From Siphonodentalium dalli (Eukaryota > Mollusca > Scaphopoda > Gadilida > Siphonodentaliidae), in contig CP136062.1 of the NCBI GenBank assembly GCA_032622095.1, positions 137,536,351 through 137,600,350 of the forward strand: a stretch of DNA of 64,000 bases, given 5' to 3'. The notes below the pieces were generated by a model. It saw nothing but the letters and a program-made list of their open reading frames with translations. It was not told where the DNA came from and ran no database searches. The first letter of the stretch is position 1, and each line of letters opens with the position of its first letter. The translations under genes were made by a program, and so were the position numbers. Below are positions 12,673-61,541 of the stretch, in pieces.

Positions 12673-12739
12673 CCAATGCATTCTCTTATATATGCGAGGC
12701 GACCTATGGTCGACTCGCATATATAAGAGAATGCATTGG
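12673..12739. repeat. 67-bp hairpin module
   Basis: The arms begin 'ccaatgcattctcttatata' and end with its reverse complement. The apical stem is of the CGACC/GGTCG type with a three-base loop. This copy lies in an inverted segment matched by the copy at 14291. Confidence 0.9.
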
Positions 12740-12810
12740 CACAGGGTATATGGGCTGATACAAAAATCGGACTTGGCACTGGAAGGGTTAATACCTGGGC
12801 ACACAATCTC

Positions 12811-12938
12811 GTCACGAGACAATGGAACTTATATACTTATAGAACTCAGCGGAATCTCATAACCCCACACAGTCGACTGTGTGGGGTTATGAGATTCCGC
12901 TGAGTTCTATAAGTATATAAGTTCCATTGTCTCGTGAC
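12811..12938. repeat. 128-bp perfect palindrome
   Basis: The centre is between 12874 and 12875 ('agtc|gact'). Both 64-bp arms read as exact reverse complements by eye, beginning 'gtcacgagacaatggaactt'. There is no spacer. It sits inside the left arm of the larger inverted element and is absent from the matching right arm, so it was added later. Confidence 0.9.
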
Positions 12939-13249
12939 GGTGTCAGACCGGTTTTCCGAAGACCTATTACTACGAAGGCCCACAACTCCGAAGACCCGAT
13001 TCTCCGACGGCCCACAACTCCGAAGACCCGATTCTCCGACGGCCCACAACTCCGAAGACCCGATTCTCCGACGGCCCATAACTCCGAAGATCCGATTCTC
13101 CGAAAGCCCATAACTCCGAAGGGCCGATTCTCCGAAGATCTATAACTCCGAAGACCTATAACTCCGAAGGGCCGATTTTCCGACGACCCATAACTCCGAA
13201 GGTCCGATTCTCCGATCGTCCGATTCTCCGAAGATTTTGTTTTATCGGG

Positions 13250-13940
13250 GTATTAACGTTTACTAAATAGTGTACAGTCCAGTGGCGAAGCCAAGGAGTC
13301 CCAAAATTCCCACTGCCCCCATTAAACATCTACTTGCTATTTCAGACAATATGGGCCCCTACCAAAACATGTCCAATGTCATGTAAACGCCCGGAAATCG
13401 TTCATGGGGCATCAAAATATTCAAACTTTTCCTACTGTCCCCATGCACCTAAATGGGAATCCTGGCCCGCCACTGACTATACACCAGATACTATAACGTT
13501 ACGTTGGCCCATGAGATGCCAGAGTAAAATGTACAGGGGTGAACGGGGAAGAACTTGTCGCCCCTGTGCTTGTTAGGCTACTCTGACATTCTTGCAGCGT
13601 TTCGTTATAATATACCCGGTGCACACCAGTGGCGGAGCCAGGGTTCCCATTTAGGGGTGCACATTAATTAGCATATGTGGGGGATATGTGGGGGATATAT
13701 CATGCATATGATATGCCGAAAGCATATCACGAAGGCCTGATTTGGGGAGCGCATACATGGGAGGGGTCGCCCCCAATCGTTGGTCCGGGGGCTCCCCTGG
13801 GCAGGAACACTGTGAATATTTGAATGCATAGGAGGGATTTCCTGACGTTTACATGACATTTGACATGTTTTTTGGGGGCGGTCTTCCCTAGGGCCCCATT
13901 GACCCCGCCACTGGACTGTACACTATTTAATAAGCGATAA
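13250..13940. other. centre of the inverted element
   Basis: This is the spacer between the TCCGAAG arms. Its ends are inverted copies ('tgtacagtccagtggcg' near 13272 and its complement near 13910). The interior is GC-richer with short stop-free frames, none of which I recognise. Confidence 0.4.
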
Positions 13941-14238
13941 AACATGATCTTCGGAGAATCGGACCTTCGGAGAATCGGACCTTCGGAGAATCGGCCCTTC
14001 GGAGTTATAGACCTTCGGAGTTATGGGCGTTCGGAGTTATAGGCCTTCGGAGTTATGGGCTTTCGGAGTTATGGGTCATCCGAGTTATGGGATTTCGGAG
14101 AATCGGGACTTCGGAGTTATGGGCTTTCGGAGAATCGGGGCGTCGGAGAATCTGACCTTCGGAGAATCGGACCTTCGGAGTTATGGGTCTTCGGAAAAAC
14201 GCTACGTAACCCTCGTGACGAGATTGTGTGCCCAGGTA

Positions 14239-14463
14239 TTAACCCTTCCAGTGCCAAGTCCGATTTTTGTATCAGCCCATATACCCTGTGCCAATGCATT
14301 CTCTTATATATGCGAGTCGACCATAGGTCGCCTCGCATATATAAGAGAATGCATTGGCCTAACAATTTTTCATCATTTGCTATTATTTTTTACAATTTTT
14401 TACAATTTTAATAATTTTTTCTTATATTCTTAAACAGACTTATTTTGTAGGTTTAGTGCCAGG
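14239..14463 (+). mobile_element. TTAA element, family C (CCCTTCCAGTGCC ends)
   Basis: It starts at TTAA (14239-14242) followed by 'cccttccagtgccaagtcc' and contains the hairpin module at 14291-14357. It appears to close near 14450-14463 with 'tagtgccaggg', a degraded right end without a clear TTAA. A partner fragment in inverse orientation lies at 12660-12790. Confidence 0.55.
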
Positions 14464-15860
14464 GAATCTTACGTTTTTCATGGGAATCAAAATTATTACT
14501 ATGAATACTTGGTGATGCAGAAAACCATAACGTTTCAGAGCGATGATAGGTCTAGATTTTCTTCCTACAGTTACAATTTTATGAGACTGCTGACTAAAAT
14601 TATTGAACCTGCAAAAACGAACGATCTCAAATTTATCGAAAGATATAAGAAACAATATTCGTATTTTTAGCTCCAAATCGACTAATTTATTCGGAAATGT
14701 TCCGCGTACACCTGTATGTTTTAATATGCCTCTATATAATCAAACTATGTATAGTGTGTTGGAGTTTGAACGAACCATGTCCGTTGAAGTCACACGCCTG
14801 ATGTACAACGGCGGCATACAATCTTTGGTTCTCGTATTACAACTGAGAAAAATTACGTCATGAAAAAAGGAAACGAACTATAATTATATGAGAACAAGTG
14901 AACACAGTCACAGAACGCTATCAAATTTACCCCACATATTTGACCTTTTATATGTTAACCTATACGACAGTGGTTATTCTAATTGGTTTATATTCTAGCA
15001 AAATATACAAATTGTGTAAGTTGGAGCACTTCAAAATAATTAACACTTCCAGGTTTTTGACGAAATTTAGTTTTTAGAAATATTTTTTCTGCTAAATTAT
15101 GAATTTGGTGTAAGTCTAATTAACTATATTTACACTCGTTCATTCTTTGGCACTATGGAACTTGATTGCAAGATTTTGGTTGGTTGAAGTTGCATCATGT
15201 GACTTCGCGCATGAGCTTTAACATGGTTCCATGGAGTGCACTAGTTGCTCGTTTAAACTGCTAGGTGAGTATAAATATCAGGAATCAATGTTGATTTAGT
15301 TGCGTGTCATGGAGTACGGATGCTTGATGGATTTATAATTTTATGTGTAATCCGCTCAAAATGTCAGACCAACTGGCATCCATACTCCATGAAACGTAAG
15401 CAAATGATCAACACAAAATTCTTGGGAGATGATCTATCTCTTCCGCGGCACAATTACAACATAATTTTTATAACTCTCGATTTCAAGACTATATACAAAT
15501 AGCTATTTTGAATAAAATACAGGTAAAGCTGTAGATTGTGTATATTATTTGTCTATAAAGACACAAAAAAAGTGGTTTATTTCGATAGTAAGATAGCGGT
15601 GGGATCTGCAGTTTAATTGCAATTCGCTGGGCTGCTAACAAAATAATAGAGTTGCCCATCTTGGTGCGCTTTGGTGTACTCGGAACATTTTCGCGCAGAT
15701 TTCTGTTCTGAAAACAGCCCCAAAAACTGTCCCGCTGATGGGATGAGAAATTCTCAATATAAAATTATATTAACTGAAGTTAACTTTTCTGGATTCACAC
15801 CTATTGTGTTATACCCAAGACTATATATAAATCTTTCTGGGAAGAAATTGACCATCTTTA
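14464..15860. other. mostly unannotated; one 16-bp inverted repeat
   Basis: There is no coding region that I can support. An inverted pair, 'catggagtacggatgc' (about 15308) and 'gcatccatactccatg' (about 15377), differs at one position. Several 60-90-codon frames look random: AT-rich, without family motifs. Confidence 0.4.
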
Positions 15861-15862
15861 AC

Positions 15863-16108
15863 TTAACCCTTCGATGACTGGAGCGTCCAATTTTTTTTGC
15901 GAAAACACTGTGCCAATGCATTCTCTTACATATGCGAGTCTCCCAAAGGGAGAAACATTATTTACCTGGACCGTGTAAGCCAGTTCATTCTCTTATATAT
16001 GCGAGGCTCCATATGGCACTGGAGACTCGCATATCAGGATATAATAGAATGCACTGGCATGTGATATTTAATGATGCACCAGCGCGCCTCACGTCATGAA
16101 AGGGATAA
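15863..16108 (+). mobile_element. TTAA element, family A (degraded)
   Basis: The left end is TTAA plus 'cccttcgatgactggagc', and the right end is 'gtcatgaaagggataa'. Two hairpin-module remnants lie inside (near 15911 and 15975-16060), the second expanded. Family A copies run CATGACTGGAGCTTCC at one end and CATGACGGGAGCTGCGC at the other. Confidence 0.7.
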
Positions 16109-16344
16109 CTATGTGAAAATAAAGATATTTGAATTTCCAGCTGTGATATATAAGACAGATGAAGAACTGTCACCTCCGCGCCACCTTAATGTGGGTGGCT
16201 GCACTGGCTGCATATAAGATGGATATAGTTGTCATGAATGAGGACATAAGTACGGGAGAGGACGGATTTGACAGCTAGCTATCAGTCACCTAAATTACAT
16301 CACCGACGTGGTACTTGTTGGTGATAAGCCATGATGGAGTACTA

Positions 16345-16847
16345 TCTCATATATATTTTGAAGACCTCTGTCTGTCTGTTTGTCTGTCTGTCTGTCCTTA
16401 ATACAAATCTACGATTCTCGACCGATCGGGACGAAACTTGGTACGTGTGTGTAGTTTGACCAGGCGGTGGTCGTTGTCGTATTGGCGAGCGCGTGCGACG
16501 CCCGTGCAGCGCATGCGCAGACGAGATCTCGGAAACGGGTGGAGCTATCGACTTGAAATTTGGTATGTGAATGTATCCTGCCCCGAGTACGAATTTTATC
16601 GGGTCGCCGAGCCCGTGCGACGCCAGCTTCGCGCATGCGCAGACGAGATCTCGGAAACGCGTGGAGCTATCGACTTGAAATTTGCTATGTGAATGTATCT
16701 TGCCCCGGATACGAATTTTATCTGGTCGCCGAGCCCGTGCGACGCCAGCTTCGCGCATGCGCAGACCAGATATCGGAAACGGGTGGAGCTATCGACTTGG
16801 AAATTTGGTTTTTGAATTGCCCGGACAACGTCGGGCTCATCGGCTAG
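16345..16847 (+). mobile_element. non-autonomous Helitron array, copy 1 of 3
   Basis: It begins TCTCATATATATTTTGAAG after A (16344) and ends with hairpin 'gcccggacaacgtcgggc', then 'tcatcggctag'. The body has 116-120-bp tandem units containing 'gagatctcggaaacg', 'ggagctatcgacttgaaatt' and 'cggatacgaattttatc'. It is non-coding; the long arginine-rich frames are repeat by-products. Confidence 0.85.
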
Positions 16848-17452
16848 TCTCATATATATTTTGAAGACCTCTGTTTGAATGTATGTTTGTATGTCATTTA
16901 TACAAATCTACGATTCTCGACCGATCGGGACGAAACTTGGTACGTGTGTGTAGTTAATTGACCAGGCGGTGGACGTTGTCGTATTGGCGAGCCCGTGCGG
17001 CGCCCGCTTCGCGCAGACGAGATCTCGGAAACGGGTGGAGCTATCGACTTGAAATTTGCTATGTGAATGTATCTTGCCCCGGATACGAATTTTATCGGGT
17101 CGCCGAGCCCGTGCGACGCCAGCTTCGCGCAGACGAGATCTCGGAAACGGGTGGAGCTATCGACTTGAAATTTGCTATGTGAATGTATCTTGCCCCGGAT
17201 ACGAATTTTATCGGGTCGCCGAGCCCGTGCGACGCCAGCTTCGCGCAGACGAGATCTCGGAAACGGGTGGAGCTATCGACTTGAAATTTGCTATGTGAAT
17301 GTATCTTGCCCCGGATACGAATTTTATCGGGTCGCCGAGCCCGTGCGACGCCATCTTCGCGCATGCGCAGACCAGATCTCGGAAACGGGTGGAGCTATCG
17401 ACTTGAAATTTGGTTTTTGAATAGCCCGGACAACGTCGGGCTCATCGGCTAG
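16848..17452 (+). mobile_element. non-autonomous Helitron array, copy 2 of 3
   Basis: It starts with TCTCATATATATTTTG directly after the CTAG of copy 1 and ends with the same hairpin and CTAG. It has one more 116-bp internal unit than copy 1, which accounts for most of the length difference. Confidence 0.85.
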
Positions 17453-18004
17453 TCTCATACATATTTTGAAGACCTCTGTTTGTCTGTATGTTTGTCTGTA
17501 TGTCATTAATACAAATCTACGATTCTCGACCGATCGGGACGAAACTTGGTACGTGTGTGTAGTTTGACCAGGCGGTCGTCAACGTCGTATTGGCGAGCCC
17601 GTGCGGCGCCCGCTTCGCGCAGACGAGATCTCGGAAACGGATGGAGCTATCGACTTGAAATTTGCTATGTGAATGTATCTTGCCCCGGATACGAATTTTA
17701 TCGGGTCGCAGAGCCCGTGCGACGCCAGCTTCGCGCATGCGCAGACGAGATCTCGGAAACGGGTGGAGCTATCGACTTGAAATTTGGTATGTGAATGTAT
17801 CTTGCCCCGGATACGAATTTTATCGGGTCGCCGAGCCCGTGCGACGCCAGTTTCGCGCATGCGCAGACCAGATCTAGGAAACGGGTAGAGCTATCGACTT
17901 GAAATTTGGTTTTTGAATAGCCTGGACAACGTCGGGCTGGGTAGAGCTATCGACTTGAAATTTGGTTTTTGAATAGCCCGGACAACGTCGGGCTCATCGG
18001 CTAG
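17453..18004 (+). mobile_element. non-autonomous Helitron array, copy 3 of 3
   Basis: It abuts copy 2 with no intervening base and ends in CTAG at 18004 followed by T. The last 70 bp contain a partial duplication of the 3' end: 'gggtagagctatcgacttg...gacaacgtcgggct' occurs twice. Confidence 0.85.
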
Positions 18005-18190
18005 TCTATTATATATTTTGGAACTTCTGTCTGTCTGTGTGTATGTATGTATGTGTGCTACAGACTCGAAAACTACTTGACCGATCCGACTTATTTTGGT
18101 ATGTAGGCCTACTTTGATCCCGGGAACAATATGGGTGGGTCCAATTATACGTGCGACCGCGTCCTTGACCTCGCTCATATAGATGTTGTA
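18005..18190 (+). mobile_element. 5' fragment of a different Helitron family
   Basis: 'tctattatatattttggaac' followed by (TCTG)n starts right after the preceding CTAG and shares 'aaaactacttgaccgatccg' with the fragment at 18808. The 3' end is missing where a family A TTAA element begins. Confidence 0.65.
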
Positions 18191-18372
18191 TATTATGCCC
18201 AAAGGGAGCCTCGCACATATAAGAGAATACATTGTCCTAACAATATTTAACTTGATTTTGTAAGTCAGCTAGTGCATTATCTTATATATGTGAGCCTCCC
18301 ATATATAAGAGAATGGACTGGCACGGAATCTTTAATGCAGCACCAGCGCAGCTCCCGTCATGAAAGGGTTAA
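18190..18372 (+). mobile_element. TTAA element, family A (left-truncated)
   Basis: The right end is 'cccgtcatgaaagggttaa' (TTAA 18369-18372). Two hairpin-module pieces precede it (18195-18234 and 18268-18322). The left terminus is missing. Confidence 0.65.
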
Positions 18373-18444
18373 AGTGACACATGATACCAAGCCTTCAATT
18401 AAACTTAATTTTGGGGTCAACAAGCCTTGAAGTAAAGTGTTTGT

Positions 18445-18516
18445 CATTTGCAGAATGAGGTCCCCAGAGGGTGAATTTAGTACCAAGTTCACCCTCTGGG
18501 AAACTCATTCTACTCA
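18445..18516. repeat. GCAGAATGAGG hairpin (family F)
   Basis: 'ccagagggtgaatttagt' and its reverse complement are separated by a few bases, flanked by 'agaatgagg' and 'cattct'. This is one of about ten copies in the window. Upstream is 'cttgaagtaaagtgtttgtc', the outer part of the family's long palindrome (compare 63,212). Confidence 0.8.
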
Positions 18517-20050: not shown

Positions 20051-20054
20051 ATAT

Positions 20055-21050: not shown

Positions 21051-22160
21051 TAAGTTCCCCAGTTGAAGTTGGTGATATTCACCCATTGGGCACCTCATTT
21101 ATGAATTTTATCTTCTGCAAATTAGGGGAAATAGAAACTTCCTAGAAGGGAAATTTAACTAACAACAATGTAAATTTGATACTATAGATACTTCCCAAAA
21201 GATGAGGCCTAAGCAGAATGAGGTCGTCAGAGGGTGAATTTGGTGATGCTAGCCTGCTGTGCCGGATAGCATCACAAAAAGCGTGTCTGTTCCTACATTG
21301 TGTATGCCTGGCCTCAAGCAACACAATGTATTATACAACAAGCCTTGAAATAGTGTGATAGCGTGTCTGTCATTTGCAGAGTGAGGTCCCCAGAGGGTGA
21401 ATTTAGTGACGCTAAATTCACCCTCTGGGGACCTCATTCTGATAAAGTCCTCAACTGCTATGGAAGACCTAGAATAAAATTGAATTTCCCCAGTTGAAGT
21501 TGGTGATGTTCACCCATTGGGCCCCTCAATTATGAATTTTATCTTCTGCAAATTAGGGGATATAGAAACTTCCTAGAAGGGAAATTTAACTAACAACAAT
21601 GTAAATTTGATACTATAGATACTTCCCAGAAGATGAGGCCTAAGCAGAATGAGGTCCCCAAATGGTGAATTTGGTGATGCTAGCCTTGAATCAAGCTTTG
21701 AAATAGTCTGTCTGTTATTTGCAGAATGAGGTACCCAGAGGGTGAATTTAGTGAGGCTATCCTGCACAGCGGGCTAGTATCACTAAATTCACCCTCTGGG
21801 GACCTCATTCTGATAAAGTCCTCAACTGCTATGGAAGACCTAGAATAAGATTGAAGTTCCCCAGTTGAAATTGGTGATGTTCACCCATTGGGCACCTCAA
21901 TCATGAATTTTATCTTCTGCAAATTAAGGGATACAGAAACTTCCTAGAAGGGAAATTTAACTAACAACAATGTAAATTTGATACTATAGATACTTCCCAG
22001 AAGATGAGGCCTAAGCAGAATGAGATCTTGAGACTCTAGATACTTCCCAGAAGATGAGGCCTAAGCGGAATAAGGTTCTCAGAGGGTGTATTTGGTTATG
22101 CTAGCCTGCTGTGTAGGATAGCGTCACTAAATTCACCCTCTGGGAACCTCATTCTACAAA
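21048..22160. repeat. composite block: 180-bp spacer repeats plus family F hairpins
   Basis: A segment running from 'ttccccagttgaagttggtg' to 'agatgaggcctaagcagaat' occurs three times (about 21050, 21485, 21850) and again at 42005. Each is followed by a family F hairpin: 'ccccagagggtgaatttagt', a variable GC-rich loop, and its complement. This gives hairpins at about 21212-21280, 21375-21442, 21645-21810 and 22075-22155. Confidence 0.8.
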
Positions 22161-22535: not shown

Positions 22536-22539
22536 AATT

Positions 22540-27552: not shown

Positions 27553-27979
27553 ATTAATGATGGGAGCTGCGCTGGTGCAGCGTTAACCCTTTGAACCCGA
27601 GCGGCCGGAAAACTGGCCGCAGCGTGAACCTCCAAATACCCCAGCGGCCGGTATACCGTGAGGGATCTATGGCACCACTTAAACAGAACCCACACATTGT
27701 GCCTAAACAAAGTCTACAATAAATCAAAAATAACACTGGGAGCCCAGGGTCATGGTGTCAATCGTTGTGGGGAGCCAGGGTTCAAAGGGTTAAATATCTT
27801 GTGCCAGTACATTCTCTTATATATGCGAGTCTCCCATAGGGACCCTCGCATATATAAGAGAATAAACTGGCTTACAAAGTACGTAAAGGTAAATATTGTT
27901 AGGTCAATGCATTCTCTTATATATGCAAGCCACAGGGTTTTCGCAAAATTTCAAGAAGCTCCAGTCATGGAAGGGTTAA
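27553..27979 (-). mobile_element. TTAA element, family A, carrying a nested TTAA element
   Basis: The left end is 'gatgggagctgcgctggtgc' and the right end is 'agtcatggaagggttaa' (TTAA 27976-27979). It holds two hairpin modules (27802-27872 complete, 27905-27930 half). A second element sits at 27583-27793, exactly where other copies have GCAGCATTAAA. Confidence 0.75.
27583..27793. mobile_element. TTAA element, family D (CCCTTTGAACCC ends)
   Basis: TTAA (27583-27586) plus 'ccctttgaacccgagcgg', ending 'gccagggttcaaagggttaa' (TTAA 27790-27793). The terminal repeat is about 12 bp. It is 207 bp from the first TTAA to the start of the second, GC-richer than its surroundings and contains 'gcggccgg' twice. 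Its host is a family A element, which supplies the empty site. Confidence 0.85.
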
Positions 27980-28737: not shown

Positions 28738-28776
28738 CACGATCAAGGAAAGTTCAGTATTTTTATTGAAGAACTA

Positions 28777-28989
28777 CAGTAATGCTCTAATTAATCGACC
28801 TCTTAACCACAGCAGAATTATGGGTAACTTTTCAGGATTTAGTGGAAAATATGGCTTGTTGCCATTCATCGGAAAGCTCTCGCCGAGAGCTTTCCGATGA
28901 ATAGCAACATGCCATATTTCCAACTAAATCCTGAAAAGTTACCCATAATTCTGCTGTGGTTAAGAGGTCGATTAATTAGAGCATTACTG
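28777..28989. mobile_element. palindromic TA-flanked MITE (pogo/Tc1-like ends)
   Basis: It begins CAGTAATGCTCTAATTAATC after TA and ends with its reverse complement before TA. The whole 213 bp is one near-perfect palindrome, with arms through 'gggtaacttttcaggattta' to a short loop 'ctctcgccgagag'. TA target and CAGT ends fit Tc1/mariner, and the 'taattaatcgactc' subterminal resembles pogo/Tigger MITEs. Arm mismatches are few. Confidence 0.85.
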
Positions 28990-29164
28990 TAATTCAAATC
29001 AAACAGGAACTATGAGATTTTAAACAATAGATAATTATAATTGGCGAATTACAATGTAATTTCGCAAAAATCTACAGAATTTGCTGAAGATGCAGACTTT
29101 GCATTTGACTGATAGTCATGCAATTTATATACCTATTTTCATCCCTGGAACTGAATAAGAATAA

Positions 29165-29585: not shown

Positions 29586-29939
29586 TTAACCCTTTACCCA
29601 ACAAAACGGCCGAAACTGGCCAAATAAAGCTTCAACAGCCTAACATATCTTCGGTCTGTCTCAATAGAACCATACAAATATGGATTTCATTGGAACCGGC
29701 TCCTTGACCACATTGTGATAGTTACAGTTAGCCCTGTGCCAATGCATTCTCTTATATATGCGAGTCGACCATAGGTCGCCTCGCATAGATAAGAGAATGC
29801 ATTGGCCTAAAAAAAATCTTTTTTTAACACTTTTTACCATTTTTTCTTACATTCTTTAACAATTTTAAATTTTTTAATGTGTTAAGCATATATAAGAGAA
29901 TGCATTGGCACAGGGCCGTTCTGTTGGGTAAAGGGTTAA
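29586..29939 (-). mobile_element. TTAA element, family B (CCCTTTACCCAACA ends)
   Basis: TTAA (29586-29589) plus 'ccctttacccaacaaaacgg', ending 'cgttctgttgggtaaagggttaa' (29936-29939). It has a hairpin module at 29742-29806 (CGACC/GGTCG type) and a half module near 29886-29912. It ends 14 bp from exon 5 of the EF-hand gene. Copies in the other orientation lie at 41209 and 43893. Confidence 0.85.
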
Positions 29940-30206: not shown

Positions 30207-30436
30207 TTAACCCTTTGAGTGCCAGGGGCCGATCTCATCGGCCCTAAACCTACAAAATAAGTCTGTTAAAGAATATAAGAATAAATTATTAAAATTGTAA
30301 AAAATAAAAATTGTTAGGCCAATGCATTCTCTTATATATGCGAGGCGACCTATGGTCGACTCGCATATATAAGAGAATGCATTGGCACAGGGTATATGGG
30401 TTGATACAAAAATCGACCTGGCACTCAAAGGGTTAA
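30207..30436 (+). mobile_element. TTAA element, family C (CCCTTTGAGTGCCAGG ends)
   Basis: TTAA (30207-30210) plus 'ccctttgagtgccagg', ending 'cctggcactcaaagggttaa' (30433-30436). The hairpin module is at 30319-30385. The segment 'cagggtatatgggttgatac' next to the module is shared with 12740 and 14265. Confidence 0.85.
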
Positions 30437-37448: not shown

Positions 37449-37981
37449 CTAGCTGAAACAGACTCCCTTTGGGAGCCTTTATTCAGCATTGGAGGGTCCA
37501 GCGTGCAGTTTTGCACACATTTACATCTTAGACAGTGGCAGCCCCATTGTGCATGAATTTTTATCTATTAAACACAATTTGTTTTAATTTTTCCATGACT
37601 GGAGCTTCCTGAAATTTTGCGAAAACCCTGTGAGAATGCATTCTCTTATATATGCAAGTCTCGCATATGTAAGAGAATACATTGACCTAACAGTATGTAC
37701 CTTGTAAGCCAGTGCATTCTCTTATATATGCGAGGCTCCTTATTGGAGACTCACATATACAAAATGTATAAGAGAATGCACTGGCACAGGATCTTTAATA
37801 CTGCACCAGTGCAGCTCCTGTCATGAAAGGGTTAAATCAAAACTTTTTTAAACTAATGCCGTTATAACATCCTCCGGGTTGCTCTGAGTTACCACACCAA
37901 ATTTGGTTGAAATCGGTCCAGGCATCTGGGAGGAAAATCGCAAACAGATATACAGACAGATCGTACTCTTTTATATATAGA
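37449..37981 (-). mobile_element. 533-bp non-autonomous Helitron with nested TTAA element
   Basis: On the minus strand it starts TCTATATATAAAAGAGTACG after A and ends with hairpin 'ggctcccaaagggagtc' (one G-T pair), then 'tgtttcagctag', followed by T. Host A|T is therefore intact. A family A TTAA element (37584-37835) sits inside, so the original Helitron was about 280 bp. It begins 48 bp past the donor of exon 3. Confidence 0.85.
37584..37835 (-). mobile_element. TTAA element, family A (inside a Helitron)
   Basis: TTAA 37584-37587, then a degraded end 'tttttccatgactggagctt'. The right end is 'gtcatgaaagggttaa' (37832-37835). Two hairpin modules are present (37632-37688 shortened, 37711-37784). 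Confidence 0.8.
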
Positions 37982-40009: not shown

Positions 40010-40240
40010 TTAACCCTTCCATGACCAGAGCTTCCTGAAATTTTGCAAAAACTTTGTGCCAATGCATTCTCCTTTATATGCATTGGCCTAACAATATTTA
40101 CCTTGACCGTGTATTAAAGCCAGTGCATTCTCTTATATATGCGAGGCTCACTATGGGAGACTCGCATATATATATAAGAGAATGCACTGGCACAGGATAT
40201 TTAATGCTGCACCAGCACAGCTCCCATCATGAAGGGTTAA
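40010..40240 (+). mobile_element. TTAA element, family A
   Basis: TTAA 40010-40013 and 40237-40240. The termini are 'cccttccatgaccagagctt' and 'gctcccatcatgaaggg'. The first hairpin module is reduced, and the second (40121-40189) is nearly intact with an extra TATA. Confidence 0.8.
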
Positions 40241-40313
40241 TTGAAAAGGATATTTTTGTTGTGTTAAGTTGGAAGTCATCATGAAACTTTGAGACCAACT
40301 AGCTAAATACATA

Positions 40314-40525
40314 CACTAATGCCCTAAATAATGGACTCCTTAACCACAGCAGAATTATGGGTAATTTTGCAGGATTTAGTCGGAAATATGGCTTGTTGTC
40401 ATTCATCGGAAAGCTCTCACTGAGAATTTCCGATGAATGGCAACAAGCCATATTTCCGACTAAATCCTGAAAAATTACCCATAATTCTGCTGTGGTTAAG
40501 GAGTCCATTATTTAGGGCATTACTG
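40314..40525. mobile_element. palindromic TA-flanked MITE
   Basis: The same family as 28777. The left end CACTAATGCCC has one change from CAGTAATGCCC, and the right end is GGGCATTACTG before TA. The arms are near-perfect over about 100 bp. Confidence 0.85.
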
Positions 40526-41208
40526 TAGTTACGACATGATCACAGTGAGTCTTTATTAATCTGGAGATAATATCCAGGTTTAGATACAAAGTTATATTAC
40601 ACTCTGACTACAAGAAATGAAGACTATATAATAAATATTATATGTCACAGACATGAAAAATAACCAATTAATATCTTGACAATAATATCGTAACCTTTTA
40701 GTGCAGCATGTCAACCCGAAGCTATACATTGTAGTTGTTTGGTATGACCAGGTATCAGGCAATACATAACACATGCTATGTTAGATGATATGTGCTTCCA
40801 GATTTTGCTGTCAAATGATAACTAAATCTGTGAAAACACAGTTTCATTGAGCGTGTATAAAAAACGAATATAGCTGTGTCATTACTGGCTAATATTTTTT
40901 TGCACTATGCAAAAAAAATATATATAATTTATTAAGCCCCAAGGTGTTCGTAATACGTTCTAATTGAAATAATTGATATTAAAATTCCTATAAAATCATG
41001 AACATCAACATTGTAAAATGTCAAAGAATTAACAATTATTATATACAATCCAGATTTTCAACCAAACGTTCAAATTAAAATTGACAAATTTTCTTGAAAA
41101 CTGGATATCTTATATCAAATGTAACTGCAATTTGCGACCAGTCATTCAACGTCGGGAGGACCGTCGCGGAACAGGATTCAATTCATGTGTTTATGAGTGT
41201 GTTTGCAT
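40526..41208. other. no recognisable feature
   Basis: AT-rich intron 2 sequence. Confidence 0.4.
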
Positions 41209-41546
41209 TTAACCCTTTACCCAACAGAAGGGCCCTGTGCCAATGCATTCTCTTATATATGCGAGTCGACCATAGGTCGCCTCGCATATATAAGAGAATG
41301 CATTAGCTTAACACATTTTTTTAGGCCAATGCATTCTCTTATATATGCGAGGCGACCTATGGTCGACTCGCATATATAAGAGAATGCATTGGCACAGGGC
41401 ATAACTGTAACTATCACAATGTGGTTAAGGAGCCGGTTCCAATGATATCCATATTTGTATGGTTCTATTGAGACAGACCGAAGATAGTTTAGGCTGTTGA
41501 AGCTTTATTTGGCCGGTTTTGGCCGTTTTGTTGGGTAAAGGGTTAT
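41209..41546 (+). mobile_element. TTAA element, family B, two complete hairpin modules
   Basis: TTAA 41209-41212 plus 'ccctttacccaacagaaggg'. Modules lie at 41240-41305 and 41326-41392 in opposite orientation. The unique tail 'ataactgtaactatcacaat...ttgttgggtaaaggg' matches 29590-29735 in reverse. The right target site is mutated to TTAT. Confidence 0.85.
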
Positions 41547-43243: not shown

Positions 43244-43443
43244 CAGTAATGCTCTAATTAATCGACTCCTGAACCACAGCAGTCAGCAGAGTTATGGGTA
43301 ACTTTTCAGGATTTAGTCGGAAATATGGCTTTTTGCCATTCAGCTTTCCGATGAATGGCAACAAGCCATATTTCCGACTAAATCTTGAAAATTTACCCAT
43401 AATTCTAATGTGGTTAAGGAGTCGATTAATTAGAGCATTACTG
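43244..43443. mobile_element. palindromic TA-flanked MITE
   Basis: The same family as 28777, with a shortened tip ('gccattcagctttccgatga') and several arm mismatches. TA lies on both sides. Confidence 0.85.
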
Positions 43444-43589: not shown

Positions 43590-43844
43590 TTATCCCTTTA
43601 ATGACTGGAGCTTCCTCAAATTTTTTGAAAACCTTGTGCCAATGCATACTCTTATATACACGAGTCTCCCACAGGGAGCCTTGCATATTTCAGAGAATAC
43701 ATGAGCCAAAAAATATTTACCTTGTAAGCCAATGCATTCTCTTATATATGGGAGGCCCCCATGAGAGACTCGCATATATAAGAGAATGCATTGGCACAGG
43801 GTCTTATTGCTGCACCAGTGCGGCTCCCGTCATGAAAGGATTAA
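43590..43844 (+). mobile_element. TTAA element, family A
   Basis: The left end 'tatccctttaatgactggag' has lost a clear TTAA. The right end is 'cccgtcatgaaaggattaa' (43841-43844). Hairpin modules lie at about 43637-43703 (degraded) and 43730-43795. Confidence 0.75.
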
Positions 43845-43892: not shown

Positions 43893-44306
43893 TATAACCC
43901 TTTACCCAACAGAACGGCCCTGTGCCAATGCATTCTCTTATATATGCGAGTCGACCATAGGTCGCCTCGCATATATAAGAGAATACATTGGCTTAACACA
44001 TATTAAAAATGATCAAATTGTCAAAGAATGTAGAAAATATTATAAGAAAAAATGGTAAAAAGTGTTAAATAAAGATTTTTTTAGGCCAATGCATTCTCTT
44101 ATATATGCGAGGCGACCTATGGTCGACTCGCATATATAAGAGAATGCATTGGCACAGGGCATAACTGTAACCATCACAATGTGGTCAATGAACCGGTTCC
44201 AATGATATCCATATTTGTCTGGTGTTATTGAGACAGACCAAAGATATTTTAGGCTGTTGAAGCTTTATTTGGGCACTTTTGGCCAGTTTGTTGGGTAAAG
44301 GGTTAA
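43893..44306 (+). mobile_element. TTAA element, family B, two hairpin modules
   Basis: The left end is 'ataaccctttacccaacaga' (TTAA mutated to ATAA) and the right end is 'ttgttgggtaaagggttaa' (44303-44306). Modules at 43923-43989 and 44086-44152 lie in opposite orientation. The 96-bp spacer is longer than in the 41209 copy, which is deleted there. Confidence 0.85.
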
Positions 44307-46449: not shown

Positions 46450-46693
46450 TTAACCCATCCATGACTGGAGCTTCCTGAAATTTTGCGAAAACCATGTGCC
46501 AATGTATTCTCTTATATATGCGAGTTCCCCATAGGGAGCCTCGCATATATAAGAGAATACACTGGCCTAACAATATTTACCTTGACCTTGTAAGCCAGTG
46601 CATCCTCTTATATATGGGAGACTCATATAAGAGAATGCACTGTCACAGGGTCTTTAATGCTGCACCAGCGCAGCTCCGTCATGAAAGGGTTAA
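46450..46693 (+). mobile_element. TTAA element, family A
   Basis: TTAA 46450-46453 and 46690-46693. The termini are 'cccatccatgactggagctt' and 'gctccgtcatgaaaggg'. Hairpin modules lie at 46498-46566 (CTCCC/GGGAG-like) and 46596-46640 (shortened). Confidence 0.85.
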
Positions 46694-52385: not shown

Positions 52386-52497
52386 AGATAGTGTACATAT
52401 ATCTCATCCCTGATCTTTCAGTATGAGATTTGTTGGTATGGAATTTTGAGTTAGAGAGGCCGTAGTCAACAAGAGCTTCTGACACTAGGAAATATGT

Positions 52498-52961
52498 GAC
52501 CCGCCATATCAAATCCAGTCGTAAGTCGGGATTTTTTTACCCTGTGCCAATGCATTCTCTTATATATGCGAGTCGACCATAGGTCACCTCGCATATATAA
52601 GAGAATGCATTGGCCTAACAATTTTTTATCATTTTTTTTAAATAAATGTTTCTTACAATCTTTAGGACATAAAATAAAAAACATCCATTACCCTGCAGGG
52701 AGCCCCACACATAAATAGAACCATATGGAAGAGTGTTGTCTGCTCATGTTTGTCTGGGGCTCTGTATGGGTGAAATTATAAAATTGTTAAAGAATACAAG
52801 AAAAAATTATTAAAATTGTAAAAAATTGTTAGGCCAATGCATTCTCTTTAATATATATGCGAGGCGACCTATATATGGTCGACTCGCATATATAAGAGAA
52901 TGCATTGGCACAGGGTAAAAATATCCCGACTTACGACTGGATTTGATATGGCGGGTCAAAT
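52498..52961. mobile_element. inverted element with two hairpin modules (family E)
   Basis: 'gacccgccatatcaaatcca' (52499) and its complement (about 52939-52958) form arms through 'gtcgtaagtcgggat' to 'accctgtgcc'. Inside are opposite modules at 52548-52614 and 52833-52907, the latter with extra TATA and AT insertions. The ends are not TTAACCC, so this is a fourth host context for the module. Confidence 0.8.
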
Positions 52962-55019: not shown

Positions 55020-56050
55020 TACATCAAATGATTGTCCCAAACCACACAACGAGTCCGCCAAACCATATACAGAGTTACAAAACCCATCTGGTATCCAAAA
55101 AAAACCAACATGTGAGTATCCAAATCCATACGACGGGCGCCCCAAATCCAAACATTGCTCCAAACCATCGATGGGGTGTCCCAATCCACCAAACGAGTTT
55201 CACAAACCACCAGACTGATGTAGACTGAGGTAGGTAGCTCCCCAAACGATACTCAACTGGTGTCATTACTCACACATATAGTCCCCAAACCATGCATTTG
55301 GTATTCCAACTCACCCAAAATAAGTGTCACAAGCCACTAAATGAGTGTCTCAATCGACCTGATTAAGGACCCAAACCAAACACCAGTAGTGCTCCATACG
55401 TTGCAACCTATGTTCGAAACAACATAATAGGTGTGTCCCAAGCCATCCAGTATGTTCCAGAAATATCCAATGAGTGTCCATAACCATCAGATGAGTAAAA
55501 CACACAATGAGCACCAATTGAGTGTGTCAAACCACTCAATCAGTGCCCCAAACCACGCAATGTGTGTACCACGGTTACCAAACCATCCATCTGGTGTTCG
55601 AAACCACACGATAGACAGACATCCAATATGTAGCCCATGCCATATGTCATACAACATACAACTGTCGTCTCAATCCATTCAACTGTAGTGTCCCAAACGA
55701 CCCAACAGTGACCCAATCGGCCACGCAGTGTCTCAATGCACATAACCAGTATCTAAAATATATAGCGAGTGTCCCAAACCACTCAATGTGAACACTCCAC
55801 CCAATTGGTGTCCCAAAAGCATCCAACTGAAGTCACAAATTACCCAGCGGGTGACCCAAACAATAAAACTAGCTTCATAAACCATCCAACAAGTTCCCTA
55901 TCCACCAACTGCACAGGACTGGTGTTGCGAACCAACAACCAACTGTCATATCAATACATCTACAATAGTGTACAAAACCCTCCATCGATTATTTCACACG
56001 ATCAAGTGAGTTTGTCAAACCATCCAATGAGTTTACCAAAACATAGTTTG
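55020..56050 (+). repeat. degenerate 21-26-bp minisatellite, forward arm
   Basis: About 40 units of the type 'gtgtcccaaaccatccaatg' recur at 21-26-bp spacing. The most constant part is CCMAACCA, followed by a variable hexamer and GAGTGTC. It carries frames of up to about 100 codons on both strands because the unit is rich in stop-free codons. Units are 50-80% alike by eye. Confidence 0.8.
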
Positions 56051-56059
56051 ATATATTTG

Positions 56060-56645
56060 AAGGATGGTTTTGTGCACTAGTTTGGGACACCTATTAAATG
56101 ACTGGGGCATTCAGTGGGTGTTCTGAGACACTAGTTGGACGTTTTATACACTCCTGCTGGTTTTGATAATCATCGTGTGGCTTGGGACACTCATTGTGTG
56201 ATTATGGACACTCATCTGTTGGTTTGAGACACCCATTGGATGGTTTGTGGTACACACTTGATGATCTGAGACATCCATTTGTGTGGTTTGGGACACCACA
56301 TACATGAATTAGGACACTCGATGGGTGACATATGGTAATCGCTGGATGGTATGGAACACACATTGGACTCGTTTAGGCACTAATTGGATGGTATTTGGCA
56401 CTATTTGGGTGTACTGTGTTACATATTATGTGGTTTGGGACACTCGTTGGCTGATTTGGAATGCCCCTTCTATGGACTGGGGCACTCACTGATTAATTTG
56501 GTATATTATTAAGAAGGCGGTTGAGTGGTTTTACACTCATTGGATGGTTTGGGGCACGCGTTAAGTTGTTCCTGACACTCATTTGATGTATTTCGATACT
56601 AGTTTGGTTGCTGTGGACACTAATCAAATTATATTCGATACGGGA
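56060..56645 (-). repeat. degenerate minisatellite, reverse arm
   Basis: The reverse complement of the forward arm unit: 'tggtttgggacactcattgg' repeats about 22 times. It is shorter than the forward arm. The switch point is about 56,050-56,065. Confidence 0.8.
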
Positions 56646-57400
56646 TATGAGAAGATTTAGTTAAAAATCAATGACGAAATATATATTTTTGACTTTCGAT
56701 TGCAATATTCGCCGCCATTATGGGACACTGTAGGGACAAATTCTCGACATACAGCTCATTATTATCGGATTAGGGTCCGACATAATTTACTGTTGTACTA
56801 GCCAATACATAGTGTTCGTCTAAATTGAAACAATCTAGTGAATAACAAAATTCCAAATTATACTAATTTCAGTAGCCATAGTGTCCCTATCTGAGAAAGT
56901 GATTGCCTAGTTTCTGCTAAAATGGACAATAGTGGTTCATATCTGACGTCTTATGGGTATTAGGTACACTGGTGAGTTCGATTTGCGGTTATTCTGGGCA
57001 TTAAAATAATATTTGATTTTTCTTCGAAATTTAGTACAATATTTTTCGAATTTGAAGGGCCCAAATTCCCAATCCTCGTGATATGGCTCACAATTATCAG
57101 ACATTGATTTAAAATGGTGTATGTTGGCACAAATGGCCATTTAAACCAAATTTCTTATAAATGGAAACGATCTGGTGAAATTTAGTGAAAATTGTCCAAT
57201 TTTACCAATTTCGGTCGCCATTTTGTCCGCCATTTTGAATTTTTACAATCAAATTGTACACGAAATAACATACGTCTGTCATGGCAACAATAATAATTTG
57301 TTTATGTTGCATATTCCTGCCATCTGTATAACTTTAATTTAAATGACATTCATGTGTATATTTCATAAGAAACGGAAAATCATACATAAAAAACACAAAT
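56646..57400. other. right spacer of the foldback-like element
   Basis: It contains 'gccgccatta' and 'cgccattttgtccgccattt' phrases but no coding region. It corresponds in position to the left spacer. Confidence 0.35.
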
Positions 57401-57584
57401 ATGACCTTTTTTTCAAAATGCTCTAGAAAATATTCCCCACAGCGGATTTCAGCGGATTTTGGATATGTTGTTCCCCGGGTTCTGCCCGACAAAATGACAC
57501 CAAAAACAGCTTGTAAACAATTTGTTCTAGGTCCAATGCTTCAACGACCAGACTACTACAACTTTTCAGGAATCTATCTACATA

Positions 57585-57706
57585 AAAGCCAATCTCCCCG
57601 AGAGCTTTCCGATGAATGGCAACAAGCCATATTTCCGACTAAATCCTGAAAAGTTACCCATAATTCTGCTGTGGTTAAGGAGTCGATTATTTAGGGCATT
57701 ACTGTA
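57585..57706. mobile_element. palindromic TA-flanked MITE, left arm mostly deleted
   Basis: The right arm is complete, from 'ccgagagctttccgatgaat' to 'gggcattactg' before TA. Of the left arm only 'acttttcagga' and 'ctccccg' remain, next to the end of the foldback-like element. Confidence 0.75.
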
Positions 57707-58331
57707 GTGGCAGTAGAGGTAGAAATTTAACATCTCTATAAACTGACAGACATGAATAGATATGTGATTGAATCATGCTGCTGACGGCAGATCATGCATT
57801 ATATATTGTCATAGAGACATTCACACATCATTGTTTAGAGCTGACCCTATGGATGCAGCTCTCCTAAAAGTATATTCCAGGGAATGCTTTATTGTTTTAT
57901 GATAATCCAACATGGAGACATTAAGAAATGGCTATACTGCTCCGATTGATTTATTGTCCACTGATGCCAATGGTGACACTGGCTGTACATTCACTCGTTC
58001 ATAGCAAGACCATACATCTATCCCAGGGAAGTTTGAAATTTGAATAAACAAAATTGGCTGGTGAAAGTGGAGTCTGGAGGGTTGTTAGCCACTTGGACCC
58101 CAGCATCTAAATTATTTATATATGGCTGTATATAAAGGTTGTTTGTTTCATTTGCGAAAGATTTCTGTGTATATCAATACTGAAATTTGAGAAGAAAAAG
58201 AGAGAGAGAGTCTTGGAAAAACTAGTGTAAGGGAATTTAAGTCTTTGAAAGAACAATTGACAAAGCATAACAGAGTTAGTTTTCCAATCTATCGTTAGGA
58301 AATACATCTGACTCTGATCTTTCTGAATGTA
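57707..58331. other. no recognisable feature
   Basis: A GA-rich tract near 58190-58210; nothing else that I can support. Confidence 0.4.
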
Positions 58332-59848
58332 CAGTAATGCCCTAATTAATCGACTCCCTAACCACAGCAGAACTAGAGGTGTGACTGTCCCAATGGGACT
58401 AAAGATACCCCCCGTGTTTTTAAAATACTAAGATGTTCAACATGTCAGTAAACATTTAGTTAAAATAATAAAAACAGTTCCCATTGCAGGTGCACAAACC
58501 TAACCGTAATCTTAAACCTATTGACCGAAAAATGTAGGAATAAAAGCTCGGACAAAATTATGAATTTTGCAAAAATGTTCTAAGTCGAAAAAGGGGAATA
58601 ACTCCACAAAACAAGTCGGACAGACATCATAATCGCAGGAGCACAGATTCTCATGGTACTAAATATCAGTGCCAAGATTAAAAAACATTGACCTAAAAAT
58701 GTAGAAATAAAAGCTCGGACAAAATTAGGCATGTTGCAAAAAAAATTCTAAGTCAGAAAAGGGGGATAACTCCACAAAAAAATGCCAGACAGACGTCATG
58801 ATCGCAGGTGCACAGGTTCCCATGGTACTAAATATTTGTGCCAAGTTAAAAAAAAATTGACCTAAAAATGTAGGAATAAAAGCTCAGACAAAATTATACA
58901 TGTTGCAAAAGAATTCTAAGTCGAAAAAGGGGGAATAACTCCACCAAAAAAAGTCGGACAGACGTCATAATCGCAGGTGCACAGGTTCCCATGGTGGTTG
59001 ATTCCTGTGCCAAGTTTCACGGAAATTGTTAAAAAAACGACTGAGAAAAACTCCGGACAAATTTGTGTCCACGGACGGATGACAGATGGACGACGGACGG
59101 ACGGACGGTACGACGGACCCACATTTTGCCCCTTATGTGTCTACAAACTTAAGTGGCTAGAAAAAATGGTGTGACCTATGTGACTACTTGTTTTTACGTG
59201 GCTTCAAAAGGGGTTCTCACGAAATGCTACTTGCGAGGCTGCAAATCAAGTGTCAATGTATTCTGTGACTTACGCAATTGAAGTAGTCAGCAGATTGTAT
59301 TTTTTCAACCCTTCATTCACAATTTAGAGAGTTCATTAAGAAATAAAGCGTGATTAAGAAAAATATTGTATATTTGTAAATAAGGTTGCTAATGTTGCTA
59401 GCCACTTAAGCCGTCCGTCCGTGTCCATAGAACACTGGTTGGACATCCATATTGATGGACAAATTGTTTCAATTTATTAAAGGACAATTTTTTCAAGTGA
59501 CTTTCTCAGGCCACTTTAATAGATCACATTTCAGTTGTCAAATGAGGTTGCTTATGTGACTAGCCACATAAGCAATCATTTGAGTCCAAATGGTATTTGA
59601 ATGGCTTCGATGACACATAAGTGGCATTTTGTGGGAACGGACGAGCTGACTCCAGTATACCCCCCCTAACTTCGTTGCGGGGGGTATAATTATGGGTAAC
59701 TTTTCAGGATTTAGTCAGAAATATGGCTTGTTGCCATTCATCGGAAAGCTTTCCGATGAATGGCCACAAGCCATATTTCCGACTAAATCCTGAAAAGTTA
59801 CCCATAATTCTGCTGTGGTTTGGGAGTCGATTAATTAGGGCATTACTG
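58332..59848. mobile_element. palindromic TA-flanked MITE split by a 1.3-kb insertion
   Basis: The left end CAGTAATGCCCTAATTAATC to 'accacagcagaa' (58372) continues at 'aattatgggtaacttttcag' (59688) through a full palindrome to 'gcattactg' (59848). The uninterrupted family sequence is CAGCAGAATTATGGG, so the insertion point is exact. Confidence 0.85.
58373..59687 (-). mobile_element. pearl/Helentron-like insertion with 169-bp tandem core
   Basis: Read on the minus strand it starts TATACCCCCCGCAACGAAGT, with a C/G hairpin closing in GGGGGGGTATA. It carries a GGACGGAC tract (59060-59115) and three units of about 169 bp (58522, 58689, 58859) with 'aataactccac' and 'gtcggacagacgtcat'. It ends with hairpin GTCCCATTGGGAC, then AGTCACACCTCTAG before T. 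A 3' hairpin plus CTAG, a 5' stem-loop and a T/T target fit Helentron-type non-autonomous elements, and the layout matches bivalve pearl elements. No coding region is present. Confidence 0.65.
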
Positions 59849-60440
59849 TACCTTCAAGATTCAGGTCTAGGATCAAATGTACAACCACTGCCATCTATTT
59901 GGTGATAAATAAGTTCAGAATTGTTGTCTCCCGGCCATGTATTTGGAAGTTTAGACTTAAGATATGAAATGTTCATATTTGAAATTTAAAATCAGAACAT
60001 TTTAATTCAAATTAGTAATAAATATTCCAATTAAAATTTGAGCAACATCTTTGTGGATAAATTTTCCAACTTTTTAAGTTAAGCTCTAGAATTTCCAATT
60101 AACTTTTGAATTTGAAATTTTGGGTCATAATTGTGGGCCAGTTGGGTTGAAGTATAGAAGTGGGTGTGTGAGCCAGTCAGACACCCAACATGTTGTTGTT
60201 GCTAGGTTTGTTATTCTGAATTGGTTTACATCAGACTATCCATTTGTTCACAAAATGAAAGTGTCAATGACACTGTAGCTCAACTTGGACAGGGAATAGT
60301 ATCATACATTACAGGGCAGTTAATGGAGTGATAAGGAGTGCGGAAATAAGTTTAAATGTTTAAGTGACCAAAAGTTAACCCGAAGAGCCATATGAAGTTT
60401 GGGATCAATTGGATAAATACTGTTGGCAATAGGTACGTAT
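59849..60440. other. no recognisable feature
   Basis: AT-rich sequence without identifiable repeats. Confidence 0.4.
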
Positions 60441-60900
60441 ACCAAAGTATTTAGATATGCAGAGTAAAATCCAAGATGGCTTCCAGCATGCAGCCATGTT
60501 TTTAATCGAATATCATTCAAATTTGATAACTCCTATCTAGAAGTGATCCTGCCATGTCTGTAAATTTTCAAAATATTTCTCTAATAAATGTTGGCTGGAT
60601 GGTGTTCCGATGGATTTAAAAGTGAAAATCCAATATTTTGAACAAAATTTAAAACTAGAAGTCACCCTGAAGATCCATATGAACTTTGGTGACAATTGGA
60701 TGAGAGATTTTACCTGCAGGGTGTGCTAAAGGATTTAGTCATACAAATGAGTAAAATCCAAGATGGCTCCCATCTAGAGGTCAACCCAAAGATCCATATG
60801 AAGTTTGGTGACAATTGGATGAGAAATGTGGTCTGTAGAGTGTGCTAAAGGAAATTGTTGACTGACGGACGCCCTCATGCACAGACAGACATGCAAGAGA
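60441..60900 (+). repeat. tandem block of 'aagatggct' units, short copy
   Basis: Units with 'atccaagatggct', 'gaagatccatatgaa', 'tttggtgacaattggatgag' and 'gtgtgctaaaggatttagtc' match 35696-37345. It ends with 'gactgacggacgcc', a degraded GGAC tail. Confidence 0.7.
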
Positions 60901-61240
60901 TTCATGAGTAGAAGACATGATCCAAATTTGGTCAAAATCAGATTCAACTCGTTTGATAGATCACGCTTACGTTACAAAATAGACACCCTGTAATCATGCA
61001 ATCCAGGAGGCATAATTCCTGAAAAGGAAATTTAGTTGGACTGGCTTTCGTACTCATCCAAAAAAATAATGAGTAGTCAAAATCGGATTATATGTTTGTT
61101 CAAGCTAGTTATTGTGCTTACAACACTAAATAGACACCGGGTTAACAATTTATCCAGGAGGCATGACTCCTGAAAAAAATTAGAGTCAGGATTGGTTTTT
61201 GAAACTTTCCAAGAGATTCCTATTAAATCATATTATATTT
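60901..61240 (+). repeat. two degenerate 180-bp units
   Basis: 'aaatagacacc', 'atccaggaggcat' and 'ctcctgaaaa' occur twice (about 60980-61030 and 61130-61180). It is probably another old tandem element. Confidence 0.5.
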
Positions 61241-61242
61241 GA

Positions 61243-61541
61243 TTAACCCTTTCATTACTTGAGCTTCCTGAAATTTTGCGAAAATCATGTGCCTATACGC
61301 ATTCTCTTATATATTTGTGAGTCTCCCATAGGGAGCATCGCATATATAAGAAAATACATTGGTCTAACAATATTTACCATGCCTGTGTAAGCCAGTGCAT
61401 TCTCTTATATATGCTAGGCTCCCTATGGGAGACTCACATATATAAGAGGTTGCATTGGCATAGTGTTTTTGCAAAATGAGAATGCACTGGCACAGTATAT
61501 TTAATGCTGCACCAGCGCAGCTCCTATCATGAAAGGGTTAA
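61243..61541 (+). mobile_element. TTAA element, family A
   Basis: TTAA 61243-61246 and 61538-61541. The termini are 'ccctttcattacttgagctt' and 'gctcctatcatgaaaggg'. Two modules (61292-61360, 61394-61458) are followed by a duplicated 'gaatgcactggcacagt' piece at 61480. Confidence 0.8.

What the first reader, a model, noticed from the sequence alone, without database searches (positions are those of the whole stretch)
12673..61458. One hairpin module carried by several unrelated TTAA elements, with covarying stem
A hairpin of about 67 bp occurs more than 20 times: 12673, 14291, 27802, 29742, 30319, 40121, 41240, 41326, 43923, 44086, 46498, 52548, 52833 and others. It lies inside elements with different termini: family A (CCCTTTCATGAC), B (CCCTTTACCCAACA), C (CCCTTTGAGTGCC) and E (no TTAACCC). 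The outer stem is shared (CATTCTCTTATATATGCGAG). The tip differs by paired changes: CGACC..GGTCG in B/C/E and CTCCC..GGGAG in A, and CCAATG..CATTGG against CCAGTG..CACTGG. The T/C mismatch and the ATA loop are kept. Preserved pairing across families suggests the structure itself is used, for example as a transposase-binding or replication structure or a small-RNA precursor, or that arms are homogenised by copying within the palindrome.
Basis: partly seen in the sequence, partly recalled or inferred. Interest (0 to 1): 0.85.

Follow-up and report, generated by a model that had tools for sequence, protein, structure and literature searches.

The report
Hairpin core shared by mosaic MITEs
A 69-base DNA hairpin, repeated more than a hundred thousand times in this genome, forms the core of several families of tiny jumping elements whose ends are unrelated to each other, which suggests that a ready-made core has been passed between different jumping elements.

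Summary
The hairpin is real: 30 full or partial copies in the window; its arm 20-mer occurs exactly 307,191 times in the 2.23-Gb genome, reversed control 0. It lies inside non-autonomous elements: A, B and C have TTAA targets and piggyBac-like CCCTT ends; E has an ATAT target. The ends are unrelated beyond about 10 nt (one borderline match, C/E), yet the B, C and E hairpins share one identical 69-bp consensus. C ends carry two alternative cores and one A-ended copy carries the B/C/E tip. So cores have been exchanged between families.

'Covariation' holds only between ancestral forms: A differs from B/C/E by 4 tip changes forming 2 complementary pairs (chance about 8e-5). Within families the arms drift independently: in 136 hairpins, 345 one-sided and 11 two-sided paired changes, against 12.0 from shuffled arms. 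The structure is not maintained after insertion; no Rfam family matches. Transposase binding by the hairpin is possible but disfavoured. Verdict: a new variant of a known kind (mosaic MITEs), notable because one core spans elements with different target sites.

The parts
30207..30436 (-). Family C element, TTAA to TTAA, one hairpin at 30318-30386 (B/C/E tip)
12672..12740 (-). Hairpin of a C-type element whose TTAA end is at 12791
14290..14358 (+). Hairpin of an inverted C-type element whose TTAA end is at 14239
29586..29939 (+). Family B element; full hairpin 29738-29806 and a remaining arm 29886-29909
41209..41546 (+). Family B element with two inverted hairpins, 41239-41307 (+) and 41325-41393 (-)
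43894..44306 (+). Family B element with two inverted hairpins, 43924-43992 (+) and 44085-44153 (-)
40010..40240 (+). Family A element; partial hairpin 40058-40081 and hairpin 40119-40191 (-)
43590..43844 (+). Family A element with hairpins 43638-43702 (+) and 43728-43795 (-)
46450..46693 (+). Family A element with hairpin 46498-46566 (+) and a shortened one 46594-46642 (-)
15863..16108 (+). Family A element with hairpin pieces 15912-15953 and 15979-16058
37635..37835 (+). Family A element (right end at 37835) with hairpins 37635-37684 and 37708-37785
61243..61541 (+). Family A element with hairpins 61299-61362 (+) and 61391-61459 (-)
27803..27979 (-). Part of a family A element with hairpin 27803-27871 and an arm 27905-27929; its other end is cut off by a TTAA element at 27583-27793
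52496..52958 (+). Family E element (ends GTGACCCGCCATATC, no TTAA) with two inverted hairpins, 52546-52614 (+) and 52833-52909 (-)

Best explanation
Most likely this is a portable core of mosaic miniature transposons. The shared unit is CCCTGT + 69-bp hairpin + C(C/T)TAACA, usually as two inverted copies around an AT-rich spacer. It has been joined to at least four sets of transposon ends: A, B and C (TTAA target, piggyBac-like CCCT ends) and E (ATAT target). SHOWN: same core with unrelated ends; homology that begins at CCCTGT; one end set (C) with two alternative cores; an A-ended copy with the B/C/E tip; independent arm drift after insertion. INFERRED: the elements are moved by the transposases that recognise their ends (probably different ones for TTAA and ATAT elements), with the core as passenger; cores and ends were exchanged by recombination or template switching, which the palindromes may favour; the paired differences between the A and the B/C/E masters arose in active source copies, by selection for symmetry or by hairpin-templated copying. 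My odds: exchange of core between end sets 0.85; the hairpin itself promotes that exchange 0.35.
For: Identical 69-bp consensus in B-left (22), B-right (23), C (10) and E (8). Homology between families starts at CCCTGT: B/E 81 bp at 98.8%, B/C 81 bp at 97.5%; B, C and E also share part of the spacer. Ends beyond 10 nt not alike in 8 of 9 between-family comparisons (B-right end not included). C ends: 7 of 20 with the hairpin core, 12 of 20 with a full-palindrome core, 1 unclassified by the filter. L012:551-1012 has A ends and a B/C/E-tip core. Copy numbers of ends at up to 2 mismatches: A 30,630, B 95,930, C 26,556, E 26,883, reversed controls 0. In the window and 20 arbitrary 7-kb stretches 46 of 48 hairpin hits had an A, B, C or E signature nearby under a permissive filter. 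Arms drift independently.
Against: All six end types join at the same CCCTGT, which random template switching would not predict. C and E ends show a borderline similarity (1.4% of shuffles). No exchange was seen in the act and no trees of cores against ends were built. Only L012 was found as an A-ended B/C/E-tip copy. 2 of 100 compensated arms at pair 30 is slightly above the roughly 0.2 expected from equal rates. Autonomous partners of A, B, C and E were not identified beyond partial TIR likeness. Sampled A, B, C and E copies are the first exact matches on one contig.
Confidence: 0.7

Rival explanations
1. The hairpin is a transposase site: an enlarged form of the palindromic internal repeat that a dimer of piggyBac's C-terminal zinc domains binds. 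The tip pairs then change together because both half-sites follow one protein, not because a hairpin forms.
For: The piggyBac and piggyBat zinc domains bind palindromes, in piggyBat with an A/T-rich centre (PMC7351741, PMC11707139, passages). Transposase-bearing loci here have palindromes with AT centres and differing stems: CTACGAG-ATAA-CTCGTAG (L021), CGCGAC-ATAA-GTCGCG (L030, L124), GGTCCGTAG-ATA-CTACGGACC (L023/L029), TCCCGG-AATA-CCGGGA (L120). Three of three transposases scanned have the zinc finger zf-Tnp_2.
Against: The hairpin consensus is identical in B, C and E although their TIRs and targets differ. A TIR-adjacent palindrome of its own is visible at one end of A, B and C elements (read by eye; not tested statistically). 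C ends are at least as common with a core that lacks the hairpin. The 33-bp stem is far longer than a dimer site. Of the ten transposase flank pairs, such palindromes beside a TIR were evident only in L120 and L124.
Confidence: 0.2
2. Arm-to-arm copying (hairpin-templated repair or gene conversion) keeps the arms matched.
For: The differences between masters are paired; 2 of the first 100 listed pair-30 mutants are compensated.
Against: No excess of paired changes in 136 hairpins; 0 of the first 100 listed pair-27 mutants compensated; the T/C mismatch survives in 113 of 122 hairpins. It could still act in active source copies only.
Confidence: 0.12
3. The core is itself a transposon with CCCTGTGCCA ends that inserted into older MITEs, which then multiplied.
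For: Homology stops at CCCTGT/ACAGGG in each family. In E the core lies between ...TTTA and TAAA..., and C reads ...ATATA before CCCTGT, which fits a TA duplication.
Against: A and B have no matching flanks at the core; 46 of 48 hits lie in A/B/C/E-type elements and the two others look like decayed A copies; C has only one hairpin.
Confidence: 0.12
4. The hairpin is expressed as a small-RNA precursor and its pairing is selected as RNA.
For: MITE hairpins can feed small RNAs (plant MITE review PMC12595863, passage; the mir-548 paper PMC1784062 was seen only in a search listing).
Against: No Rfam match in the window; pairing not kept after insertion; a three-base loop on a long near-perfect stem.
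Confidence: 0.04

Closest known systems
piggyBac-like elements and their MITEs
   Same: TTAA at both ends, ends starting CCCT, palindromic inner repeats (PMC12324416, PMC7351741, PMC11707139, passages); piggyBac transposases abundant in this genome (128 matches); B ends share TTAACCCTTTACCCA with the upstream flank of a transposase at L130, and C ends resemble the ends of L021
   Different: A 69-bp hairpin pair as inner core, shared with E, which has no TTAA; no autonomous element with the full ends was found
Chimeric Galileo elements of Drosophila mojavensis (PMC3573991, passages)
   Same: Copies with two TIRs of one subfamily and an internal region of another; exchange of sequence among copies
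   Different: There the subfamilies belong to one transposon; here the end sets are unrelated in sequence and differ in target site
MER6 MITE carrying the SINE V domain (PMC6887750, abstract)
   Same: One conserved module found in element types with different mobility
   Different: A single composite origin; not a hairpin and not repeated swaps of ends
Bacterial REPINs (PMC3116915, search listing only; details recalled)
   Same: Two inverted palindromes as a dispersed unit
   Different: Here the hairpins lie inside elements bounded by inverted ends and target duplications; a Y1-type transposase was not searched for

Membership tests
piggyBac-type MITE (A, B, C) | TTAA at both ends | tested here: met
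   e.g. 30207-30436, 29586-29939, 46450-46693; some copies have a mutated base
piggyBac-type MITE (A, B, C) | Inverted ends starting CCC | tested here: met
   TTAACCCTT at both ends, then family-specific sequence
piggyBac-type MITE (A, B, C) | Ends shared with an autonomous piggyBac element | tested here: inconclusive
   B shares 15 nt with the flank of a transposase (L130, other end not found); C resembles L021; none found for A
piggyBac-type MITE (E) | TTAA target | tested here: not met
   ATAT on both sides in 9 of 13 copies, ATTT/ATTT in 1, AAAT/AAAT in its mirror copy, one-base differences in 2; two pairs of the 13 are mirror copies of one site
piggyBac zinc-domain (CRD) binding palindrome | Palindrome next to the TIR, specific to the transposase lineage | tested here: not met
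   the hairpin is further inside and identical in B, C and E; binding itself could not be tested
Structured RNA or small-RNA precursor | Known RNA family, or base pairs conserved among copies | tested here: not met
   0 Rfam matches at gathering scores; no excess of paired changes
Structured RNA or small-RNA precursor | Expression as small RNA | not testable with these tools
   no RNA data
REPIN-like element moved by a Y1 transposase | Cognate Y1 transposase in the genome | not tested
   no search made

The most novel reading that the evidence does not exclude
A palindromic core lives as a parasite of parasites: it has repeatedly acquired ready-made transposon ends, including ends with different target sites and so probably different transposases, and by this reached more than 120,000 exact tip copies; its palindromes make it prone to join new ends at a fixed CCCTGT boundary, or it is a mobile unit in its own right.
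Probability: 0.3. Interest if true: 0.8.

Novelty: new variant of a known kind. Interest (0 to 1): 0.52.

Why it matters
MITE families are usually pictured as shrunken copies of one parent. A core common to elements with unrelated ends and different targets would mean that miniature elements also evolve by assembling parts, and that one core can outlive the transposase that moves it. With over a hundred thousand copies in one genome the exchange can be traced in detail, and the question whether palindromes drive it becomes testable.

Tried and rejected
Hairpin as conserved RNA: no Rfam match and no within-family covariation. Arm-to-arm conversion in place: no excess of paired changes. Hairpin as the main transposase site: weakened by its identity across B, C and E. 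C elements as ends of an autonomous element: two C copies were extended by about 4 kb; L098 proved a closed 523-bp element with no open frame over 90 aa inside it; L106 gave no clear right end, and a 186-aa frame there was not searched. A 69-base DNA search of the genome returned nothing; the tool says that very common words are skipped, so this shows nothing. Ten flank pairs of transposases (three of them one family by their ends) gave few convincing paired TIRs, so autonomous partners of A, B and C remain open; only 116 of 649 transposase candidates had been scored, and L021-L030 carried no hairpin. Seven paper searches listed nothing recognisable as a hairpin core shared by MITEs with different ends; they cover an open-access library and most listed papers were not read. 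The host species was not identified.
Full report
WHAT WAS CHECKED. The window lies in a 2.227-Gb genome of 9 contigs, 190 to 301 Mb long. The host was not identified; size and transposon content say eukaryote. The hairpin is GCCAATGCATTCTCTTATATATGCGAG-T-CGACC-ATA-GGTCG-C-CTCGCATATATAAGAGAATGCATTGGC (69 bp) in B, C and E; in A the tip is CTCCC-ATA-GGGAG. The arm 20-mer has 45 window matches at up to 3 mismatches against 0.01 expected and 307,191 exact genome matches against 0 for the reversed pattern. The exact 23-base tip with its flanks occurs 121,266 times in the B/C/E form and 3,982 times in the A form.

ANATOMY. Window elements and fetched copies, 40 A, 20 B, 20 C and 13 E, show one plan: end - CCCTGT - hairpin - C(C/T)TAACA - AT-rich spacer - inverted hairpin - ACAGGG - end. 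A, B and E usually have two inverted hairpins, C one. Some A copies have more hairpins in a row (L033, L037, L043, L045), others shortened ones (L031, L052). The T/C mismatch gives the hairpin a direction, and CCCTGT (often mutated in A) faces the element end. A, B and C are bounded by TTAA and begin CCCTT. E is bounded by ATAT: 9 of 13 copies on both sides, ATTT/ATTT in one, AAAT/AAAT in its mirror copy, a one-base difference in two; L134/L135 and L139/L141 are mirror copies of one site each, so 11 sites in all. A TA duplication within ATAT fits nearly as well.

ONE CORE, DIFFERENT ENDS. The consensus hairpins of B-left (22), B-right (23), C (10) and E (8) are identical over 69 bp. Between families homology begins at CCCTGT: B with E 81 bp at 98.8%, B with C 81 bp at 97.5%; B, C and E also share part of the spacer. 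Beyond the first 10 nt the ends are no more alike than shuffled ones in 8 of 9 between-family comparisons; C against E is borderline (1.4% of shuffles). The long B-right end was not in that test. Of 20 C ends, 7 run into the hairpin core, 12 into another core that makes the whole element one palindrome, and 1 (L107) escaped the filter but looks like the second kind. All 20 B ends and, by a filter allowing 5 errors, 37 of 40 A ends run into a hairpin arm. L012:551-1012 has A ends with the B/C/E tip, and its spacer matches that of C and E. Exchange of cores between end sets explains this best. In the window and the 20 stretches at arbitrary round coordinates, 46 of 48 hairpin hits had an A, B, C or E signature within 330 bp under a permissive filter (25% errors; six hits got two labels); the other two look like decayed A copies. 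No free-standing hairpin was seen.

THE COVARIATION QUESTION. Between master forms the differences are paired: A differs from B/C/E by four tip substitutions that make two complementary pairs (chance 8e-5 analytically, 6.5e-5 by simulation), A-right by six that make three pairs (2e-6); A-left has one more, unpaired, at position 62. These are at most three events on one branch and cannot tell selection for symmetry from a copying event. Within families the result is plain. Of 208 hit clusters I dropped 62 short ones and 10 duplicates, leaving 136 hairpins: 345 one-sided changes, 11 two-sided paired, 9 two-sided unpaired; shuffling right arms among copies gives 12.0 two-sided paired (sum of the four class means). 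An earlier tally without removal of duplicates agrees once pair 5, which separates A-left from A-right, is set aside (7 two-sided paired elsewhere in A against 10.2 expected; 1 against 0.16 in the B/C/E tip). Genome-wide, 281 tips have the left arm changed at pair 30 (G to T) with either right-arm letter; 2 of the first 100 listed are compensated. 566 have pair 27 changed (G to A); 0 of the first 100 are compensated. The 2 of 100 is above the roughly 0.2 that equal rates would give, and is told as a result against complete independence. Divergence from consensus is 1.05% for the B/C/E tip and 9.4% for A, so A looks older.

HOW IT MAY WORK. piggyBac transposases are plentiful (128 matches, lower bound); three of three scanned carry the catalytic domain and the zinc finger zf-Tnp_2. 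In piggyBac and piggyBat that domain binds, as a dimer, a palindrome next to the TIR (PMC7351741, PMC11707139; passages), and piggyBac-like elements are described with inner inverted repeats (PMC12324416; passages). Several transposase-bearing loci here show such palindromes: L021, L023/L029, L027, L030, L120 and L124; in the other flank pairs I saw none beside a TIR. At one end of the MITEs a TIR-adjacent palindrome of their own can be read: GGCC-AAAACC-GGCC (B), GGGCCGAT-CTC-ATCGGCCC (C), GCTGC-GCTGGT-GCAGC (A) (by eye, no statistics). So the transposase site is probably that one, and the common hairpin a separate inner module. That C ends also thrive with another core speaks against the hairpin being needed for movement. 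I therefore favour a passenger core whose palindromes may help it to be joined to new ends; this last step is inference. The constant CCCTGT junction is the main point that plain template switching does not explain, and it keeps the reading open that the core is a mobile unit of its own.

KNOWN RELATIVES. Chimeric Galileo elements with the ends of one subfamily and the inside of another (PMC3573991, passages) and the MER6 MITE with a SINE domain (PMC6887750, abstract) are the closest precedents found. mPing work shows that internal MITE sequence can raise or lower mobility (PMC9921582, abstract).

LIMITS. The targeted copies are the first exact matches listed, all on contig C1, which favours young copies. 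Ends of most autonomous elements were not found. Expression and binding data are not available.

Noticed in passing
window 28775-28991, 40312-40527, 43292-43402, 59688-59809: Another family of long near-perfect palindromes (TACAGTAATGCTCTAATTAATCGAC...), up to 217 bp, without TTAACCC ends.
   Followed up: no
window 18452-18511, 21377-21441, 21722-21812, 63245-63409: A further palindromic repeat family (CAGAATGAGGTCCCCAGAGGGTGAATTTAGTG...) with varying inner parts; related pieces also lie beside the transposase flanks L120 and L121.
   Followed up: no
L094, L104, L108 (contig C1): C-ended elements that are one palindrome from end to end, about 175-215 bp, with the same ends as the hairpin-bearing C elements.
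   Followed up: partly
window 12367-14360: Two inverted C-type ends with hairpins enclose about 1.5 kb that holds a 130-bp perfect palindrome (12810-12939) and arrays of a 16-bp CCGAAG unit on both sides.
   Followed up: no
window 27583-27793: A TTAA element of another family (TTAACCCTTTGAACCC...) without a hairpin appears to have inserted into the TTAA of an A element, cutting off its end.
   Followed up: no
L134 compared with L142; L097, L039: The middle of E is inverted in L142 relative to L134, as inverted hairpins would allow; a piece of it (CAGGGAGCCCCA...) also appears in A-type contexts.
   Followed up: no
G000 contig C1, about 727,000-926,000: Hairpins recur at regular spacing of about 14.6 kb and then 11.2 kb, so hairpin-bearing segments form long tandem arrays there.
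   Followed up: no
L021:520 to 4783 (numbered with L113 joined): A piggyBac-type element with TTAACACGTTGAGTGCC at both ends, an open 670-aa transposase frame and a pair of CTACGAG-ATAA-CTCGTAG palindromes near each end; a related copy is L028.
   Followed up: partly
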